Of a stretch of DNA of 59,679 nt, positions 13,683 to 19,417 are shown piece by piece. This DNA is from Bacteroidota bacterium (GTDB lineage: Bacteria > Bacteroidota > Ignavibacteria > SZUA-365), in NCBI GenBank assembly GCA_003246455.1, contig QKAF01000154.1:1-59679 (forward strand), given 5' to 3'. The notes below the pieces were generated by a model. The model was not told the DNA's origin and ran no database searches. It worked only from the letters and a program-made list of their open reading frames with translations. The stretch's first letter is position 1. Each line of letters starts with the position of its first letter. Both the position numbers and the translations under genes were made by a program.

Positions 13683-15734
13683 ATGCAACGCATCCGGAAT
13701 CTCTCTTCAAGATCAAAACTCCTGCTTGCCGGACTTACGGTGCTGGCGATTGCGGTCACGCTGTTTGTGTGGTTTGAAGTGTCCCAGAGCAGGGAGGAAT
13801 TGCTGCATTTCGTCAAGACGGAAGCCCAGGTGCTGGTTGAAGCCGTCGGCAGCAGCAGCATCACGACGGTCGCGGCAAACAGCGAACTGGAGCGCAGCAT
13901 TCTGGATCGCCTCCGCCTGGCGGCAAAATTTGTCGAAGTGAGAACCCGGTCAAATGGGGTGGCGGATTTTCGTGCGATCGCGCGCGAGATCTCTGTGGAC
14001 CTCCTGATGATCATCAACGAGGACGGAACAGTCAAGGCATCGAATCTTGCCGCTGCTCCTCCCCGTACAAGTGTCGACCCCTCAACGGATCTCTTCCACG
14101 ATGTACTGCAGCCCGTGCTGCGGGGAGAATACTCCTGGCTCGCACAGGGCGGCATGCGTACCCCGTGGTCGCCCGAGCGCCTGTATCTGTTCGCACAGGA
14201 ACGCGAATCCGGGTCCGGCGCCGTGCTCCTCGGCATCTCCGCATCCGCCATGCTCGAGATGCGCATGCGTCTCGGCATCGGCCGGCTCCTCCGCGATATC
14301 GGAACGGCACATTCCATCGTGTACGTGGTTCTGCAGGACGACGACGGCCTGCTCACCGCCAGCGAAGGCGTCGAGGAAATGGGATCGATAGAGTCCGACG
14401 GCTTTCTGCGCAGCGCCTGGAAATCCGACAGCACACGATCCCGCATCACCGAGTACGCGGGAGAACCGCTGTTCGAGGTGGTCAAGCGCCTGCATTTCGA
14501 AAACCAGGGTCCGGCGCTCATGCGCATCGGCCTTTCGCTCGAGCATGTCCGGAGTATCCAGCAGCGATCGATGCATCGCGTGGTATTCATCGCGTTCGGT
14601 TTTTTCATCACCGCCGCGATCCTGCTGATTCTCCTGCATACGCGGCAGCGGTACGGCGTGCTGCAGCAGGAGCACCGGAAGGTCCGCAGTTATACCGGGC
14701 TCGTGCTCGACAATATCGCGGACGCCGTGGTCGCGACCGACGCCTCCGGCCTGATCACGGTCTTCAATCAGACCGCCGCGCGCCTGTTCGGTCTCGATCC
14801 GGACGCAGTCATCGGCCGCCCCTGCCGGGAAATATGCCGCGATGACACCCTCCTGCTGCAGCAGACCCGCAGCAGTGCGGCAGCTGTTCCGTACCAGGAA
14901 AACCAGTTGACGCGGCCGGGAGGAGAACGGCGTACCGTCGCGGTGAGCACGTCGATCATTCAGGACGACGCGGGCGAGGTCGAAACGATTGTGGCGATTG
15001 CCCGCGATATCACGGAACAGCTCCGCGTGCAGGAACAGCTGCAGCGCAAGGATCGCGTCACCGCGATGGGGGAACTCGCCGGCGGTATCGCGCATGAAAT
15101 CCGCAATCCGCTCAACGCCATCAACATCATCGCACAGCGGTTCCAGTCCGAATTCGTTCCGGCCACCGATGCGGAAGAGTACCTTCAGCTCGCAAAAACC
15201 GTGCGCTCCGAAGTTCAGCGTGTCAATACGATCATTACGCAGTTCCTGGAATTCGCCCGTCCGCCGCGGCTGAACCTGGAACCCTGCGACGCGTCGCGCC
15301 TTCTGCACGACAGCCTCGAAGTCGTACGCAGCCAGGCAATGCAGCGGGATATCCGCCTCGAACTGATCGCCGGCGAGGGGCTTCCCCTTTCGGCCGATCG
15401 AGAGAAAATGCACCAGGTGCTCCTCAACCTTCTGCAGAATGCGATCGAGGCCGTCGGCCAGAGCGGAATGATCAAGGCTGTCGCCTGCAGACGCGGTGCG
15501 AATGTCGAGATCACGATTGCCGACAACGGCCCTGGCATTCCGGAAGAGAGCAGAAAGAAAGTTTTCAACCTGTATTACACCACCAAGGCGACGGGGACGG
15601 GCCTGGGTCTCAGCATCGTTCACCAGATCGTGAGCGAGCATGGCGGCGATGTCTCCGTGACCACCTCCCCCGAAGGAGGCGCGGCCTTCCGCATTCTGCT
15701 TCCGGCAGCTCCGGCAGAGCCGGCTGTAACGTGA
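13683..15734 (+). CDS. PAS-domain sensor histidine kinase (NtrB/AtoS/ZraS-like)
   Basis: The 683-residue kinase has a membrane helix at 12-33, a large extracytoplasmic sensor region (about 34-298), a second helix at 300-319, a PAS domain at about 335-445 (VLDNIADAVVATDASGLI), and a HisKA domain with phospho-acceptor His471 in GGIAHEIRNPLNAI. The HATPase domain has N box LNLLQNAIEA, G1 DNGPGI and G2 GTGLGLSIV. It senses an unknown envelope or external signal and phosphorylates the response regulator encoded 66 bp downstream. A sigma54 promoter lies directly upstream. No strong Shine-Dalgarno is present. Confidence 0.94.
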   Translation: MQRIRNLSSRSKLLLAGLTVLAIAVTLFVWFEVSQSREELLHFVKTEAQVLVEAVGSSSITTVAANSELERSILDRLRLAAKFVEVRTRSNGVADFRAIAREISVDLLMIINEDGTVKASNLAAAPPRTSVDPSTDLFHDVLQPVLRGEYSWLAQGGMRTPWSPERLYLFAQERESGSGAVLLGISASAMLEMRMRLGIGRLLRDIGTAHSIVYVVLQDDDGLLTASEGVEEMGSIESDGFLRSAWKSDSTRSRITEYAGEPLFEVVKRLHFENQGPALMRIGLSLEHVRSIQQRSMHRVVFIAFGFFITAAILLILLHTRQRYGVLQQEHRKVRSYTGLVLDNIADAVVATDASGLITVFNQTAARLFGLDPDAVIGRPCREICRDDTLLLQQTRSSAAAVPYQENQLTRPGGERRTVAVSTSIIQDDAGEVETIVAIARDITEQLRVQEQLQRKDRVTAMGELAGGIAHEIRNPLNAINIIAQRFQSEFVPATDAEEYLQLAKTVRSEVQRVNTIITQFLEFARPPRLNLEPCDASRLLHDSLEVVRSQAMQRDIRLELIAGEGLPLSADREKMHQVLLNLLQNAIEAVGQSGMIKAVACRRGANVEITIADNGPGIPEESRKKVFNLYYTTKATGTGLGLSIVHQIVSEHGGDVSVTTSPEGGAAFRILLPAAPAEPAVT

Positions 15735-15800: not shown

Positions 15801-17165
15801 ATGAGTGAATTCAGCATACTAATCGTGGACGATGAAGCTGCCCAGCGTGCCTCCATCGCGGGTTTCCTGAGAAAACAGGGATTCGACACGCGCGAGGCTG
15901 CGTCTGGCAGCGAGGCGGTGACCTATATCCGCGACCATCACGTCGACCTCGTCCTAACCGACTTTCGCATGCCTGACCTGACGGGGAAGGACGTGCTGCG
16001 CGAGGTCCGTCAGATAAACCCGGACATTCCCGTCGTCGTGATCACCGCATTCGGGAGCATCGAAACGGCGGTCGACATCATGAAATCGGGAGCATTCGAC
16101 TACCTCCAGAAGCCGGTGGAACTCGAGGAACTGCTGCTCATCATCCAGCGCGCCAGGGAACATTTTCTCCTCGTATCGGAAAACCGTCTCCTCCGGGAAC
16201 AGCTCGCTGAACGCTATTCCTTCGCGAACATCGTCTCGCAGAGCGGACCGATGGAACAGGTGCTCAATACCGCCGGGCGAGTCGCCGCGAGCAAGGCCTC
16301 GGTCCTCGTCCGAGGCGAGAGCGGAACGGGAAAGGAACTGATCGCGCGCGCGATTCATATGGCCAGCGACCGGAAGGACCGGCCGTTCGTCGTCGTCAAC
16401 TGCGCCGCACTCCCCGAGACGCTTTTTGAAAGCGAACTGTTCGGGCACGAAAAGGGCTCTTTCACCGGTGCGGACAGGCAGCGCATCGGAAAATTCGAAC
16501 AGGCCAACGGGGGCACCCTTTTCATCGATGAAGTCGGCGACATCCCGCTGCTCATCCAGGTCAAGCTGCTGCGCGCACTGCAATTCGGTCAGATCGAGCG
16601 CATCGGCGGCTCGGAGACCCTGCAGCTCGATGTCCGCATCGTTGCGGCGACGAACCGTGATCTGGAAGCGATGATCGCCGAAGGCGGTTTCCGGGAAGAT
16701 CTGTACTACCGTCTCAATGTTGTCACCATTCCCCTTCCGGCGCTCCGCAGCCGCCGCGAGGATATCGCTCCGCTCGTGCAGGAGTTCATCGTCAAATACG
16801 CGGAGATCAACGGCAAGGGTGTCCGCTCGCTCTCGCACGAGGCGATGGACGCCCTCATGCGCTACGATTTCCCCGGGAACGTCCGCGAGCTCGAAAACAT
16901 CATCCAGCGGGCCGTGGTACTTACGCGCGATGACACCATCACGACGAGGGATCTTCCGCCGAACATCAGCGCCACGGTGCACCCCTCGACGGAAAACCAC
17001 GAACTGCTCGAGCTCGGGAATCTGAATGAGCGGGTCGAGTCCCTGGAACGGATACTCATCGACAAGGCGCTCGAAAAAAGCGGGGGCAACCAGGTACGCG
17101 CAGCGGACATCCTCGGGATTTCCGAGCGGACGCTCAGGTACAAGCTCGCGAAATACCGCGGCTGA
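15801..17165 (+). CDS. Sigma54-dependent response regulator (NtrC family)
   Basis: The protein has 454 residues: a receiver domain with phospho-acceptor Asp54 in LVLTDFRMPD, and an AAA+ domain with Walker A GESGTGKE. The sigma54-contact loop reads GSFTGA (Ser replacing the usual Ala of GAFTGA). Walker B lies in GTLFIDEVGD, with the arginine-finger region after it, and the C-terminal Fis-type helix-turn-helix is NQVRAADILGISERTLRYKL. When phosphorylated it should remodel RNA polymerase-sigma54 at -24/-12 promoters. Two such promoters flank the pair (13624 and 17295), and a palindromic upstream site lies at 17197-17237, so both are likely targets. Confidence 0.96.
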   Translation: MSEFSILIVDDEAAQRASIAGFLRKQGFDTREAASGSEAVTYIRDHHVDLVLTDFRMPDLTGKDVLREVRQINPDIPVVVITAFGSIETAVDIMKSGAFDYLQKPVELEELLLIIQRAREHFLLVSENRLLREQLAERYSFANIVSQSGPMEQVLNTAGRVAASKASVLVRGESGTGKELIARAIHMASDRKDRPFVVVNCAALPETLFESELFGHEKGSFTGADRQRIGKFEQANGGTLFIDEVGDIPLLIQVKLLRALQFGQIERIGGSETLQLDVRIVAATNRDLEAMIAEGGFREDLYYRLNVVTIPLPALRSRREDIAPLVQEFIVKYAEINGKGVRSLSHEAMDALMRYDFPGNVRELENIIQRAVVLTRDDTITTRDLPPNISATVHPSTENHELLELGNLNERVESLERILIDKALEKSGGNQVRAADILGISERTLRYKLAKYRG

Positions 17166-17196: not shown

Positions 17197-17237
17197 TTCG
17201 ACAATTATTGCCGCCCGGATTCGACATGATTGTCGAA
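17197..17237. promoter_or_regulatory. Putative enhancer (UAS) for the sigma54 activator
   Basis: A perfect inverted repeat TTCGACA-TGAT-TGTCGAA (17220-17237) is preceded 23 bp upstream by the same half-site TTCGACA (17197-17203), with a degenerate partner. The spacing is about two helical turns. The palindrome centre lies about 93 bp upstream of the start predicted for the sigma54 promoter at 17295-17311, the usual distance for an NtrC-type enhancer. Confidence 0.6.
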
Positions 17238-17294: not shown

Positions 17295-17311
17295 CTGGCA
17301 CGAAGGTTGCA
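17295..17311 (+). promoter_or_regulatory. Sigma54 (-24/-12) promoter of the DEDGDG secreted-protein operon
   Basis: CTGGCACGAAGGTTGCA matches the sigma54 consensus TGGCACG-N4-TTGCA completely. GG is at 17297-17298 and GC at 17309-17310. The predicted start near 17322 leaves a 29-nt leader with an AGAGG ribosome-binding site before ATG 17351. Confidence 0.9.
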
Positions 17312-17350: not shown

Positions 17351-17698
17351 ATGAAACACATCACTTTCCTCTTCGCCATCGCAGTTCTCCTGATCGGTCT
17401 CAGCAGCAATGCTTCCGCTCAGCAAAAACAGGATGGGAAAGATGGCAAGACTGCGGTCACCAAGCAGACCACGCAGAATCAGGGCCCGCGCTTCGTTGAC
17501 GAAGACGGCGACGGAATCTGCGATCATCAGGCAGACGGCACGTCCAACCAGCGTCAGCACGCTCGCCGCGGCACCGGCAACGGTACCGGGCAGTGCACTG
17601 GCACGGCGCAGCGCGCACGTCTTCGTGATGGTTCCTGTGGTGACGACGGCGCGACGCCCTCCGGCGTCACTCGCAAAGGCCGTCAGCAGGCAAAGTAA
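17351..17698 (+). CDS. Small secreted protein with one DEDGDGICD motif
   Basis: The 115-residue protein has a signal peptide (residues 1-23, ending ASA-Q). The mature part is strongly charged. Its centre carries FVDEDGDGICD (Asp50-Asp58), a DxDGDGxxD pattern like the first half of an EF-hand or a dockerin/thrombospondin calcium loop. A Gly/Arg/Gln-rich tail with Cys57, Cys82 and Cys96 follows. Ca2+ binding is inferred only. The start is fixed by the signal peptide and the AGAGG site. It is the first gene behind a consensus sigma54 promoter and is followed by a hairpin and a related protein. I do not recognise a named family. Confidence 0.8.
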   Translation: MKHITFLFAIAVLLIGLSSNASAQQKQDGKDGKTAVTKQTTQNQGPRFVDEDGDGICDHQADGTSNQRQHARRGTGNGTGQCTGTAQRARLRDGSCGDDGATPSGVTRKGRQQAK

Positions 17699-17705
17699 CG
17701 GAAAC

Positions 17706-17733
17706 GGCGGGCGGCTCTCCCATGCTGCCCGCC
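17706..17733 (+). other. Intercistronic RNA hairpin
   Basis: GGCGGGC (17706-17712) pairs perfectly with GCCCGCC (17727-17733), and three further pairs extend the stem to an 8-nt loop. No run of T follows, so it may stabilise the upstream message or attenuate transcription partially rather than terminate it. Confidence 0.55.
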
Positions 17734-17753
17734 TTATTCCCTGGAGACCTCAA

Positions 17754-18113
17754 ATGAGATTCACGATATTCCTCATAGCACTTACCATTTCCGCGCTGCC
17801 GCTTCTCGCTCAGGACAGGCCTGAAGGGAAAGGACCGCACGGGAAGAAACACGCGCAGGCAACGGAACAGACCGCGCCGCGTTTCGTCGATGAAGACGGT
17901 GACGGCATCGATGACCGCGGGAAACAGAATCCGCAGTCCGTAAAAAGCTCGCCCGACGAAACTTCCTCACAGGGGAAGAAGCAGCAGCTCCGCATGAACC
18001 GCCGCGACCGCTTCATCGATCAGGACGGGGACGGCATCAACGACGAACGCTGCAGCGGTACCGGGCTCCGGCAGGGCTATCGCCACGGAGCCGCGAAGGG
18101 AGGTGACGAATGA
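17754..18113 (+). CDS. Small secreted protein with two DxDGDGxxD motifs
   Basis: The 119-residue protein has a signal peptide (1-19, ALPLLA-Q) and a Lys/Gln/Gly-rich mature chain. It has two calcium-loop-like motifs: FVDEDGDGIDD (Asp46-Asp54) and FIDQDGDGIND (Asp89-Asp97). It is clearly related to the preceding gene: the PRFVDEDGDGI segment is identical, suggesting duplication. A GGAG ribosome-binding site lies 7 nt before ATG. The stop overlaps the outer-membrane barrel start (ATGA), so the two are probably co-translated and may work together at the outer membrane. Function unknown. Confidence 0.78.
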   Translation: MRFTIFLIALTISALPLLAQDRPEGKGPHGKKHAQATEQTAPRFVDEDGDGIDDRGKQNPQSVKSSPDETSSQGKKQQLRMNRRDRFIDQDGDGINDERCSGTGLRQGYRHGAAKGGDE

Positions 18114-19417
18114 CACGGCGCGTGCTGCTGGCCATCGTGTTGATTTTCACCGCCACTCCCGCGGGCGCGCAATGGCTCGGGACGATTTCGATCGAGAGCG
18201 GGTACGACGACAACATGTTTCGCAATTACAGCAATGCCTCAGCCGCATCGACGGATCTTACCCTCATGTACGGCTATTTCCCTGAAGAAAGTCCGTGGGC
18301 GCTGAACTACACCGGCTCGCTCACAACGTTTCCCCAGTATGACGAGAGAATGTACTCGACCCACAGTTTCGGCGCGTCGTGGATACGCGTGTACGGCGAG
18401 CAGGATGTAAACAGTTTCAGCATCCTGGGCATCGGGAGCATGCGGTTCGACAGGGAAGATTACTCCCTCTACGACTATTCCCAGATGATGGGATCCGTTT
18501 CTCTTAAACAGCAGATCACGGCCGACCTGCCCCTTCTCGCGTCGTACCGCGCGCGCTACCGCAGCTATCCGAATTTCGGAGAACTCAGCTACCTGGAGCA
18601 TTTCGCGTCGATCGGAACGATGGTATTTTTCGAATCCCGCACCAGCATTCGCGTGCAGGCGGATTACGGATTCAAGAATTATCTGACGAAAACCACTATT
18701 GAGACGACCGAGGGGAGCGGCTTTACCGCACCGCAGAATCAACTCACCGTTGATGGCGGCGGGAATGGCGGTGGCGGAAACGGCAGCAGCGGCAACGGCG
18801 GCGGTGGGGCCGGCAGCGGAAGCAGCGGAAGCGGCGGGAGCGGCGGGAGCGGAAATGGCAATGGTTCCGGCAGAATGTCCATGGGTGGCAGCGGACAGGG
18901 CGTCGGCATGGAGAGTTCCGTCGAGTATCTCGTCTTTGAAGAGCCCTCCACGAGCCAGCTCAGCGCGTGGATCAACATCGGGACCGGCCTGAGCGTTCGT
19001 TATCTGCAGCGCTGGAATCTGACGGACCGCGGACGCGCCTTCATCGGCGGGGCTGTCGATTTCATCGGCGAGGAGGAGCTCTTCGACGATCCCTACAGCT
19101 ATGAAAGCAGCGAAGCGACACTGACGGTCACCCAGGTGCTTCCATGGGCGATGCGCCTGAAGACCGGGGCCTACTTCCTGCACAAAACCTACGGGTATCC
19201 CTCAACACTCGATTACACCGATCCGAATGCGGTTTCACGCACGGATGACCGTATGGGCGGCTGGCTTACCCTCAGCAAGACCATCGGCGGGAACTGGCTT
19301 CTTTTCAACGGCCTGAACCTTTCGCTGAGCTACATCTACCTCCGCAACCAGTCGAACACGAGCTATTACGATTACAGCAGCAACTCACTGAGTTTCGGCA
19401 TCAGTACGGATTTCTGA
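18110..19417 (+). CDS. Outer-membrane beta-barrel protein with Gly/Ser/Asn-rich loop
   Basis: This 435-residue protein has a signal peptide (1-20, AGA-Q). Alternating amphipathic strands rich in Tyr, Trp and Phe run through the whole chain, which ends in GISTDF with the terminal Phe typical of barrels. Residues 216-266 form a low-complexity Gly/Ser/Asn stretch, best placed in an extracellular loop. No named family is recognised. It is the last gene of the sigma54-driven operon, overlapping the DxDGDG protein by 4 bp, and is closed by a strong terminator. It could export, anchor or respond to the small Asp-rich proteins. Confidence 0.78.
   Translation: MTRRVLLAIVLIFTATPAGAQWLGTISIESGYDDNMFRNYSNASAASTDLTLMYGYFPEESPWALNYTGSLTTFPQYDERMYSTHSFGASWIRVYGEQDVNSFSILGIGSMRFDREDYSLYDYSQMMGSVSLKQQITADLPLLASYRARYRSYPNFGELSYLEHFASIGTMVFFESRTSIRVQADYGFKNYLTKTTIETTEGSGFTAPQNQLTVDGGGNGGGGNGSSGNGGGGAGSGSSGSGGSGGSGNGNGSGRMSMGGSGQGVGMESSVEYLVFEEPSTSQLSAWINIGTGLSVRYLQRWNLTDRGRAFIGGAVDFIGEEELFDDPYSYESSEATLTVTQVLPWAMRLKTGAYFLHKTYGYPSTLDYTDPNAVSRTDDRMGGWLTLSKTIGGNWLLFNGLNLSLSYIYLRNQSNTSYYDYSSNSLSFGISTDF
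18755..18907. repeat. Low-complexity GGC/GGA/AGC tract coding the Gly-rich loop
   Basis: About 150 bp of irregular trinucleotide-like repeats (GGC, GGA, AGC, AAT) encode residues 216-266 of the barrel protein. The tract keeps frame and is likely prone to length change by slippage. Confidence 0.8.

What the first reader, a model, noticed from the sequence alone, without database searches (positions are those of the whole stretch)
17351..18113. Tandem related secreted proteins with DEDGDG calcium-loop-like motifs
Both proteins share the PRFVDEDGDGI segment; the second has two motifs. Spacing DxDGDGxxD equals the first nine positions of an EF-hand or dockerin loop, but the flanking helices of a true EF-hand are not obvious. 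The tails are Gly/Arg/Gln-rich with few Cys. They look like an unnamed secreted family, possibly duplicated locally.
Basis: partly seen in the sequence, partly recalled or inferred. Interest (0 to 1): 0.62.

Follow-up and report, generated by a model that had tools for sequence, protein, structure and literature searches.

The report
Secreted metal-loop proteins, sigma-54 signalling regulon
Two small exported proteins with calcium-loop-like motifs turn out to be the output of a dedicated sensor/regulator pair and the neighbours of an outer-membrane barrel, a gene set that recurs with its own DNA control sites in Bacteroidota and probably several related bacterial phyla, and that I found described in no open-access paper or family library I searched.

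Summary
Window 17351-17698 and 17754-18113 encode two signal-peptide proteins sharing PRFVDEDGDGI; the second has another motif. They are not a recent duplicate but two subfamilies kept side by side in related genera. B and the barrel overlap by 4 nt.

Upstream of A is the window's only match to the sigma-54 consensus (17296-17311), preceded by a perfect palindrome TTCGACATGATTGTCGAA (17220-17237). The same half-sites and -24 box precede such small genes across phyla, an unlinked paralogue in this genome and, in relatives, DUF2202 genes. In 395 genomes of the phylum, small gene and barrel co-occur in 38 and are adjacent in 36.

The loops are not EF-hands: position 12 is acidic in 3% of 201 loops. 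Best reading: a sigma-54 two-component regulon making disordered, cation-binding envelope proteins that work with a dedicated barrel, probably in metal or redox stress. Regulation is well supported; ion and role are inferred. It resembles PEP-CTERM/PrsKR and ZraPSR without belonging to either.

The parts
13683..15734 (+). Histidine kinase, 683 aa: membrane sensor region, then PAS, HisKA, HATPase_c
   Evidence: Pfam; present in the related cassettes; sensor region conserved with invariant R194, G198, G200, Q218, E265, R281, G283
15801..17165 (+). NtrC-type response regulator, 454 aa: receiver, sigma-54 activator AAA+ and Fis HTH domains
   Evidence: Pfam; 53-67% identical in distant cassettes, next best in own genome 46%
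17197..17212 (+). Upstream half-site TTCGACAATTATTGCC (probable regulator binding site 1)
   Evidence: Repeated in related loci, usually 23 bp from site 2
17220..17237 (+). Perfect palindrome TTCGACATGATTGTCGAA (probable regulator binding site 2)
   Evidence: Only perfect match in window; its half-sites are the top enriched 6-mers upstream of distant small genes
17296..17311 (+). Sigma-54 -24/-12 promoter TGGCACGAAGGTTGCA
   Evidence: Only match in window, 0.05 expected; box conserved in relatives and distant loci; RpoN encoded in all 12 family genomes
17351..17698 (+). Small secreted protein A, 115 aa, one loop DEDGDGICD
17498..17524 (+). Loop D50-D58 of A (DEDGDGICD)
17754..18113 (+). Small secreted protein B, 119 aa, two loops; C-terminal signature DxFIDxDGDGIxDxR
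17889..17915 (+). First loop of B, D46-D54 (DEDGDGIDD)
18018..18044 (+). Second loop of B, D89-D97 (DQDGDGIND), inside the signature conserved across distant loci
18110..19417 (+). Outer-membrane beta-barrel protein, 435 aa, start codon overlapping the B stop codon (ATGA)
   Evidence: AlphaFold2 barrel of about 16 strands, pLDDT 77.7; nearest PDB folds are porins; follows B in 23 of 29 loci

Best explanation
This is a stimulus-response cassette. The membrane kinase (13683-15734) senses a periplasmic or envelope cue and phosphorylates the NtrC-type regulator (15801-17165). The regulator binds the paired TTCGACA/TGTCGAA sites (17197-17237) and drives sigma-54 RNA polymerase at 17296-17311. This turns on small proteins A and B, the barrel, and unlinked genes carrying the same sites. 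A and B pass the inner membrane by the Sec route and stay largely unfolded. Their conserved D-x-D/N-G-D-G-x-x-D loops bind divalent cations, most likely Ca2+, in the periplasm or at the surface. B acts together with, and perhaps through, the barrel encoded in the same transcript. The likely purpose is protection or adjustment of the envelope under metal or redox stress, because the same control sites precede MJ0754-like DUF2202 lipoprotein genes in relatives and a DUF4405 heme-b-type membrane protein sits in some cassettes. Shown by computation: gene set, operon layout, control sites, regulon. Inferred: ion binding, B-barrel partnership, stimulus and role.
For: Cassette conserved in same-family loci even where flanks differ; clustering ORFs of 61 loci leaves four recurrent families in 42-43 loci each, the next in 9. 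In 395 genomes of the phylum small gene and barrel co-occur in 38 and are adjacent in 36. B followed by barrel in 23 of 29 loci, usually a 4-nt overlap. One sigma-54 consensus in the window, 0.05 expected; perfect palindrome; TGGCAY before 28 of 45 leading small genes vs 19 of 427 control ORFs; blind 6-mer count recovers GTCGAA (40/51 vs 78/671) and TCGACA. Pattern and promoter searches return paralogues and DUF2202 genes; DUF2202 genes carry the box in 10/13 cassette and 0/14 other genomes. Loop position 9 Asp in 200 of 201.
Against: No binding, expression or localisation data exist. Position 12 of the loop is not acidic, so any Ca2+ site must be incomplete or completed by a partner. Structure of a longer relative is low confidence. 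DUF2202 is absent from the window's own genome and DUF4405 occurs in few cassettes, so the metal/redox role rests on relatives. Loci are related by descent, so p-values overstate independence. In some loci B is not followed by the barrel.
Confidence: 0.55

Rival explanations
1. Matrix or aggregation system: A, B and paralogues are extracellular matrix proteins whose loops use Ca2+ to crosslink exopolysaccharide, and the barrel exports or anchors the polymer, as a parallel to PEP-CTERM proteins under PrsK/PrsR.
For: Same regulatory logic as PEP-CTERM/PrsKR, where an RpoN-driven small secreted protein rescues floc formation (PMC9850573; PMC1569441). Weak EpsL match of the barrel (E 9e-6) and AlgE among its fold neighbours. 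A barrel paralogue lies beside glycosyltransferase and UDP-GlcNAc 2-epimerase genes in L184. One relative carries a Por_Secre_tail surface-sorting domain.
Against: No polysaccharide genes recur in the cassettes. EpsL score 24.9 vs cut-off 275. The regulon includes DUF2202 genes, which this model does not predict.
Confidence: 0.2
2. Chaperone or feedback accessory system: A and B act like ZraP, buffering metal or binding the kinase sensor domain to damp signalling, with the barrel as a stress-induced porin.
For: NtrC-type kinase/regulator next to small secreted targets, as in ZraPSR (PMC7657598). AtoC and ZraR are the top NCBIfam matches of the regulator.
Against: No ZraP sequence similarity; the multiplied unlinked paralogues and 4-nt coupling of B to the barrel suggest more than feedback.
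Confidence: 0.12
3. Slam-like export: the barrel is a dedicated translocator that delivers B (and A) to the cell surface.
For: Barrel passes the Pfam SlipAM cut-off narrowly (24.3 vs 22 bits); strict B-barrel adjacency and overlap.
Against: Only the last 113 of 288 profile positions match; the barrel starts right after the signal peptide with no N-terminal domain; fold search returns general porins.
Confidence: 0.1
4. The small proteins are canonical EF-hand or dockerin calcium proteins.
For: First nine loop positions match.
Against: Position 12 acidic in 3% of loops; no EF-hand or dockerin hit in Pfam; no flanking helix pair in the longer-relative model.
Confidence: 0.03

Closest known systems
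PEP-CTERM / PrsK-PrsR sigma-54 regulon (PMC1569441; PMC9850573)
   Same: Dedicated membrane kinase plus NtrC-type regulator; activator motif plus sigma-54 box upstream of many unlinked genes for secreted proteins.
   Different: Regulator scores 423 vs PrsR cut-off 502.6 and kinase 96 vs PrsK cut-off 300; the small proteins show no PEP-CTERM match and end in basic Gly-rich tails; barrel neighbour instead of PrsT.
ZraPSR (E. coli; PMC7657598)
   Same: Sigma-54 response regulator activating a neighbouring gene for a small periplasmic protein.
   Different: Regulator 451 vs ZraR cut-off 760, kinase 227 vs ZraS cut-off 479; A and B unrelated in sequence to ZraP as far as Pfam/NCBIfam show; barrel and unlinked paralogues added.
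EF-hand, dockerin and TSP3 calcium loops
   Same: D-x-D/N-G-D-G-x-x-D start of the loop.
   Different: No acid at position 12; no family match above cut-off.
SlipAM / Slam surface-lipoprotein modulators (PF04575)
   Same: Barrel passes the Pfam cut-off narrowly over its C-terminal part.
   Different: No N-terminal domain; general porin-like fold.
DUF2202 / MJ0754 family
   Same: Under the same promoter sites in relatives.
   Different: A separate protein and a regulon member, not a homologue of A or B; matches solved MJ0754, PDB 3q4n, E 1.3e-38. Its ferritin-like fold is my recollection, not tested.

Membership tests
EF-hand | Acidic residue at loop position 12 | tested here: not met
   3% of 201 loops; A, K and C in the window loops
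EF-hand | Helix on each side of the loop | tested here: inconclusive
   No helix pair around a loop in the AlphaFold2 model of a longer B-type relative, but pLDDT is only 59; the window proteins themselves were not folded
EF-hand | Match to a Pfam EF-hand model | tested here: not met
   None at E<=1 for A or B
Calcium-binding protein (any) | Measured Ca2+ binding | not testable with these tools
   Needs purified protein
TSP3 repeat | Match to TSP_3 or TSP3_bac above cut-off | tested here: not met
   Best E 0.27, 11.6 bits vs cut-off 25, in type-C paralogues
Sigma-54 two-component system | Receiver plus sigma-54 activator plus Fis HTH regulator next to a histidine kinase | tested here: met
   Pfam domains all above cut-off
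Sigma-54 two-component system | -24/-12 promoter and upstream activator sites at the target gene, and RpoN in the genome | tested here: met
   (sequence only; binding not measured)
PEP-CTERM / PrsK-PrsR | PrsK and PrsR family scores above cut-off | tested here: not met
   PrsR 423.4 vs 502.6; PrsK 96.3 vs 300
PEP-CTERM / PrsK-PrsR | C-terminal PEP-CTERM sorting domain on the targets | tested here: not met
   No match in Pfam or NCBIfam
ZraPSR | ZraR and ZraS scores above cut-off | tested here: not met
   ZraR 451.1 vs 760; ZraS 226.7 vs 479
ZraPSR | ZraP-type target protein | tested here: not met
   No such family match for A or B
Slam / SlipAM (PF04575) | Pfam score above gathering cut-off | tested here: met
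   24.3 vs 22 bits, but only profile positions 169-281 of 288
Slam / SlipAM (PF04575) | N-terminal periplasmic domain before the barrel (from general knowledge of Slam) | tested here: not met
   Strands begin at residue 20, directly after the signal peptide

The most novel reading that the evidence does not exclude
A cross-phylum envelope response (Bacteroidota, with MAG contigs labelled KSB1, Calditrichota, Latescibacterota, Neomarinimicrobiota and others) in which one sigma-54 two-component pair with a conserved DNA code commands a new class of unfolded cation-binding secreted proteins, a dedicated outer-membrane barrel, MJ0754-like lipoproteins and a heme-b membrane protein: an undescribed extracytoplasmic metal or redox homeostasis system.
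Probability: 0.4. Interest if true: 0.78.

Novelty: new variant of a known kind. Interest (0 to 1): 0.62.

Why it matters
About one in ten sampled genomes of the phylum (38 of 395 with both small gene and barrel), plus loci from MAGs of other phyla, carry this set, yet the small proteins have no family name and I found no paper on them. It gives many 'hypothetical protein' genes a regulator, a promoter code, a membrane neighbour and testable co-regulated genes (DUF2202, DUF4405), and it offers a second example of the PEP-CTERM style of sigma-54 control of small secreted proteins.

Tried and rejected
EF-hand, dockerin and TSP3 membership. Weak HvfA (RiPP metallophore) match to A (E 0.007, 17 bits vs cut-off 95): rejected, as it looks like composition and no such maturation gene was seen in the cassette. 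Slam exporter membership. A first UAS pattern with rigid 23-bp spacing gave mostly chance hits with comparable control counts; replaced by a half-site pattern. A weighted sigma-54 matrix over 260 bp separated poorly from controls at most thresholds; replaced by TGGCAY at -120 to -15; this choice was made after seeing the first result, so the p-value is exploratory, although the 6-mer count and the DUF2202 comparison are separate tests. Sequence search of solved structures with the small families gave nothing credible. Fold search of the longer B-type model gave no match. Literature searches for the motif strings and for a calcium/sigma-54/Ignavibacteria link gave nothing relevant. Clostridial, actinobacterial and archaeal repeat proteins with similar motifs (L088, L098, L104, L113) lack the barrel and this regulator within the fetched DNA and were not treated as members.

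Full report
OBSERVATION. A (17351-17698, 115 aa) has a signal peptide, one loop DEDGDGICD, then C-x-GT...RLRDGSCGD and a basic tail. B (17754-18113, 119 aa) has a signal peptide and two loops, DEDGDGIDD and DQDGDGIND, the second inside DRFIDQDGDGINDER. In the own genome the DEDGDG DNA signature occurs three times and two are here; the third is in a larger, apparently unrelated protein. A and B are conserved between species.

TWO SUBFAMILIES, NOT A RECENT DUPLICATE. In related genomes A and B stay distinct: A keeps RLRD(G/A)SC, B keeps RDxFIDxDGDGIxDxR. Of eight relatives first examined, four have a full A-B pair (L024, L026, L027, L028), one has A plus a B cut off by the contig end (L025), and three have B only (L029, L030, L031). 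A ninth locus (G001, L055) also has B only. A third type, C, with GDGIPNGQDPDY, is unlinked; the own genome has it at C58:26195-26650.

CASSETTE. Comparing eight same-family loci with the window, kinase, regulator, small gene(s) and barrel are together unless the contig ends, down to 38% identity for the barrel and in a locus (L028) where one flank differs. Two (L076, L077) are relatives already seen. Of the 38 others, 25 hold a regulator at least 50% identical to the window's, 28 the barrel and 20 the kinase sensor domain. The 28 and 20 are inflated because many of these proteins helped build the profiles; BLAST agrees for most. The own genome's next best regulator is 46% identical, so the 50% line is meaningful. 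Clustering every ORF of 61 loci left four recurrent families in 42-43 loci each: regulator, small protein, barrel, kinase. The next is DUF4405, in 9 loci. In an even sample of 395 genomes of the phylum the small gene is in 44, the barrel in 48, both in 38, and they are adjacent in the same orientation in 36. B is followed by the barrel in 23 of 29 loci, typically with an ATGA overlap.

CONTROL REGION. The window has one match to TGGCACN5TTGCW, at 17296-17311, against 0.05 expected, and one perfect TTCGACA-N4-TGTCGAA, at 17220-17237. The relatives repeat the layout: half-site, usually 23 bp, second site, usually about 65-80 bp, then TGGCAC/T; the -12 half varies more, and in the unlinked genes it reads TGGTA. 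In distant loci TGGCAY lies 15-120 bp before 28 of 45 leading small genes, 0 of 5 operon-internal ones and 19 of 427 other ORFs; on the opposite strand it is 1 of 45. That test replaced a weaker one and is exploratory. In the 170 bp upstream of such boxes, a blind 6-mer count across 51 genes ranks GTCGAA first (40/51 vs 78/671) and TCGACA second (24/51 vs 59/671): the window's own half-sites. RpoN is encoded in all 12 family genomes. These p-values assume independence; the loci are related by descent, so the evidence is weaker than the numbers, but the signal spans contigs assigned to several phyla.

REGULON. The paired-site pattern gives 11 sites in 12 genomes and none for the reversed control. 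One is the cassette of G011, eight precede unlinked small genes, and two look like chance. The family promoter string TTTGGCACGGTTGTGG with two mismatches gives 18 sites, against about as many or more for the reversed control (27 in all), so the count alone is not above chance; but 14 of the 18 precede small genes of this kind, the cassette or DUF2202 genes (with loci read in 25, 26). DUF2202 genes carry TGGCAY upstream in 10 of 13 cassette genomes and 0 of 14 others. They encode lipoprotein-like precursors (lipobox by eye) that match solved MJ0754 structures. DUF4405, a class with purified heme-b members related to a ferrosome cytochrome (PMC11334425), sits inside or next to several cassettes. 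DUF2202 is absent from the window's own genome.

LOOPS AND STRUCTURE. Over 111 distinct small proteins and 201 loops, positions 1, 3 (Asp/Asn), 5 and 6 are fixed by the search pattern; beyond it, position 9 is Asp in 200 of 201, position 4 Gly in 186, and position 12 acidic in 3%. This excludes canonical EF-hand and dockerin loops. Composition is 20% Gly and 12% Asp, rich in Asn, Lys, Arg and Gln. AlphaFold2 on a longer B-type homologue (L114, 197 aa, 17 sequences) gave pLDDT 59, no helix pair around a loop and no PDB match, which fits disorder without ions but proves little. The barrel model is good (pLDDT 77.7, about 16 strands, an unordered Gly-rich loop at 196-272); nearest folds are OprD-type porins, chitoporin, OmpG and AlgE at TM about 0.45: a porin-like barrel, no specific family.

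MECHANISM. Supported by computation: gene set, operon layout, sigma-54 promoter, activator sites, unlinked targets sharing them. Inferred: that the regulator encoded here binds these sites (supported by co-conservation), that the loops bind a cation (about 0.65), that it is Ca2+ (about 0.45), that B works with the barrel (about 0.75), and that the cue is metal or redox stress (about 0.4). I know of no member that has been studied.

COMPARISON. The logic matches the PEP-CTERM/PrsK-PrsR system, where an activator motif and sigma-54 box precede most proteobacterial PEP-CTERM genes (PMC1569441) and overexpressing an RpoN-driven member rescues floc formation (PMC9850573). It also matches ZraPSR, where ZraR activates the periplasmic chaperone gene zraP (PMC7657598). 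It belongs to neither: NCBIfam cut-offs are missed and the small proteins match neither family. Hence 'new variant of a known kind'.

TAXONOMY NOTE. Phylum names of distant loci come from MAG titles and may include misbinned contigs, for example 'Ectothiorhodospiraceae', 'Heimdallarchaeota' and 'Gemmatimonas'.

Noticed in passing
L068 / L032 (own genome C58:26023-26650): Unlinked type-C paralogue with four loop-like repeats (GDGIPNGQDPD) carries the same paired sites and TGGCACGGTTGTGGTA upstream: a second regulon member in the window's genome.
   Followed up: yes
L227, L228, L229, L198, L202, L208-L211, L219: DUF2202 lipoprotein-like genes (MJ0754 relatives) carry the TGGCAY box and often the half-sites, but only in genomes that have the cassette.
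   Followed up: partly
L083:3663-4502, L183:6616-7458, L084:5534-6391, L086:9623-10447, L187:7472-8305: DUF4405 heme-b-type membrane protein inserted in or beside the cassette operon.
   Followed up: partly
L108:10464-11174: A small-protein relative with FVDANGDGKCDN repeats ends in a Por_Secre_tail sorting domain, hinting at surface delivery in that lineage.
   Followed up: partly
L181:2645-4039, L184:2318-3670 and own genome C30:16846-18102: Paralogues of the barrel; in L184 it lies beside a glycosyltransferase, a DUF2334 protein and a UDP-GlcNAc 2-epimerase, as in a polysaccharide locus.
   Followed up: partly
L088:16-531, L098, L104, L113: Clostridial, actinobacterial and archaeal MAG contigs encode repeat proteins with the same FVDxDGDGxxD motif but no barrel or NtrC-type regulator nearby; L088 has a different response regulator and kinase directly downstream.
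   Followed up: no
L114:3974-4567, L101, L111, L090, L091, L082: Long B-type variants with five or more loops and a conserved GK.Y.H.F segment, ending in the same DxFIDxDGDGIxDxR signature.
   Followed up: partly
L079:3164-4354, L080:9682-10881, L115:1564-3039, L082:15518-16288: A related secreted protein sits near the cassette in four loci; a C-terminal sorting domain is above cut-off in L079 and just below it in L115.
   Followed up: no
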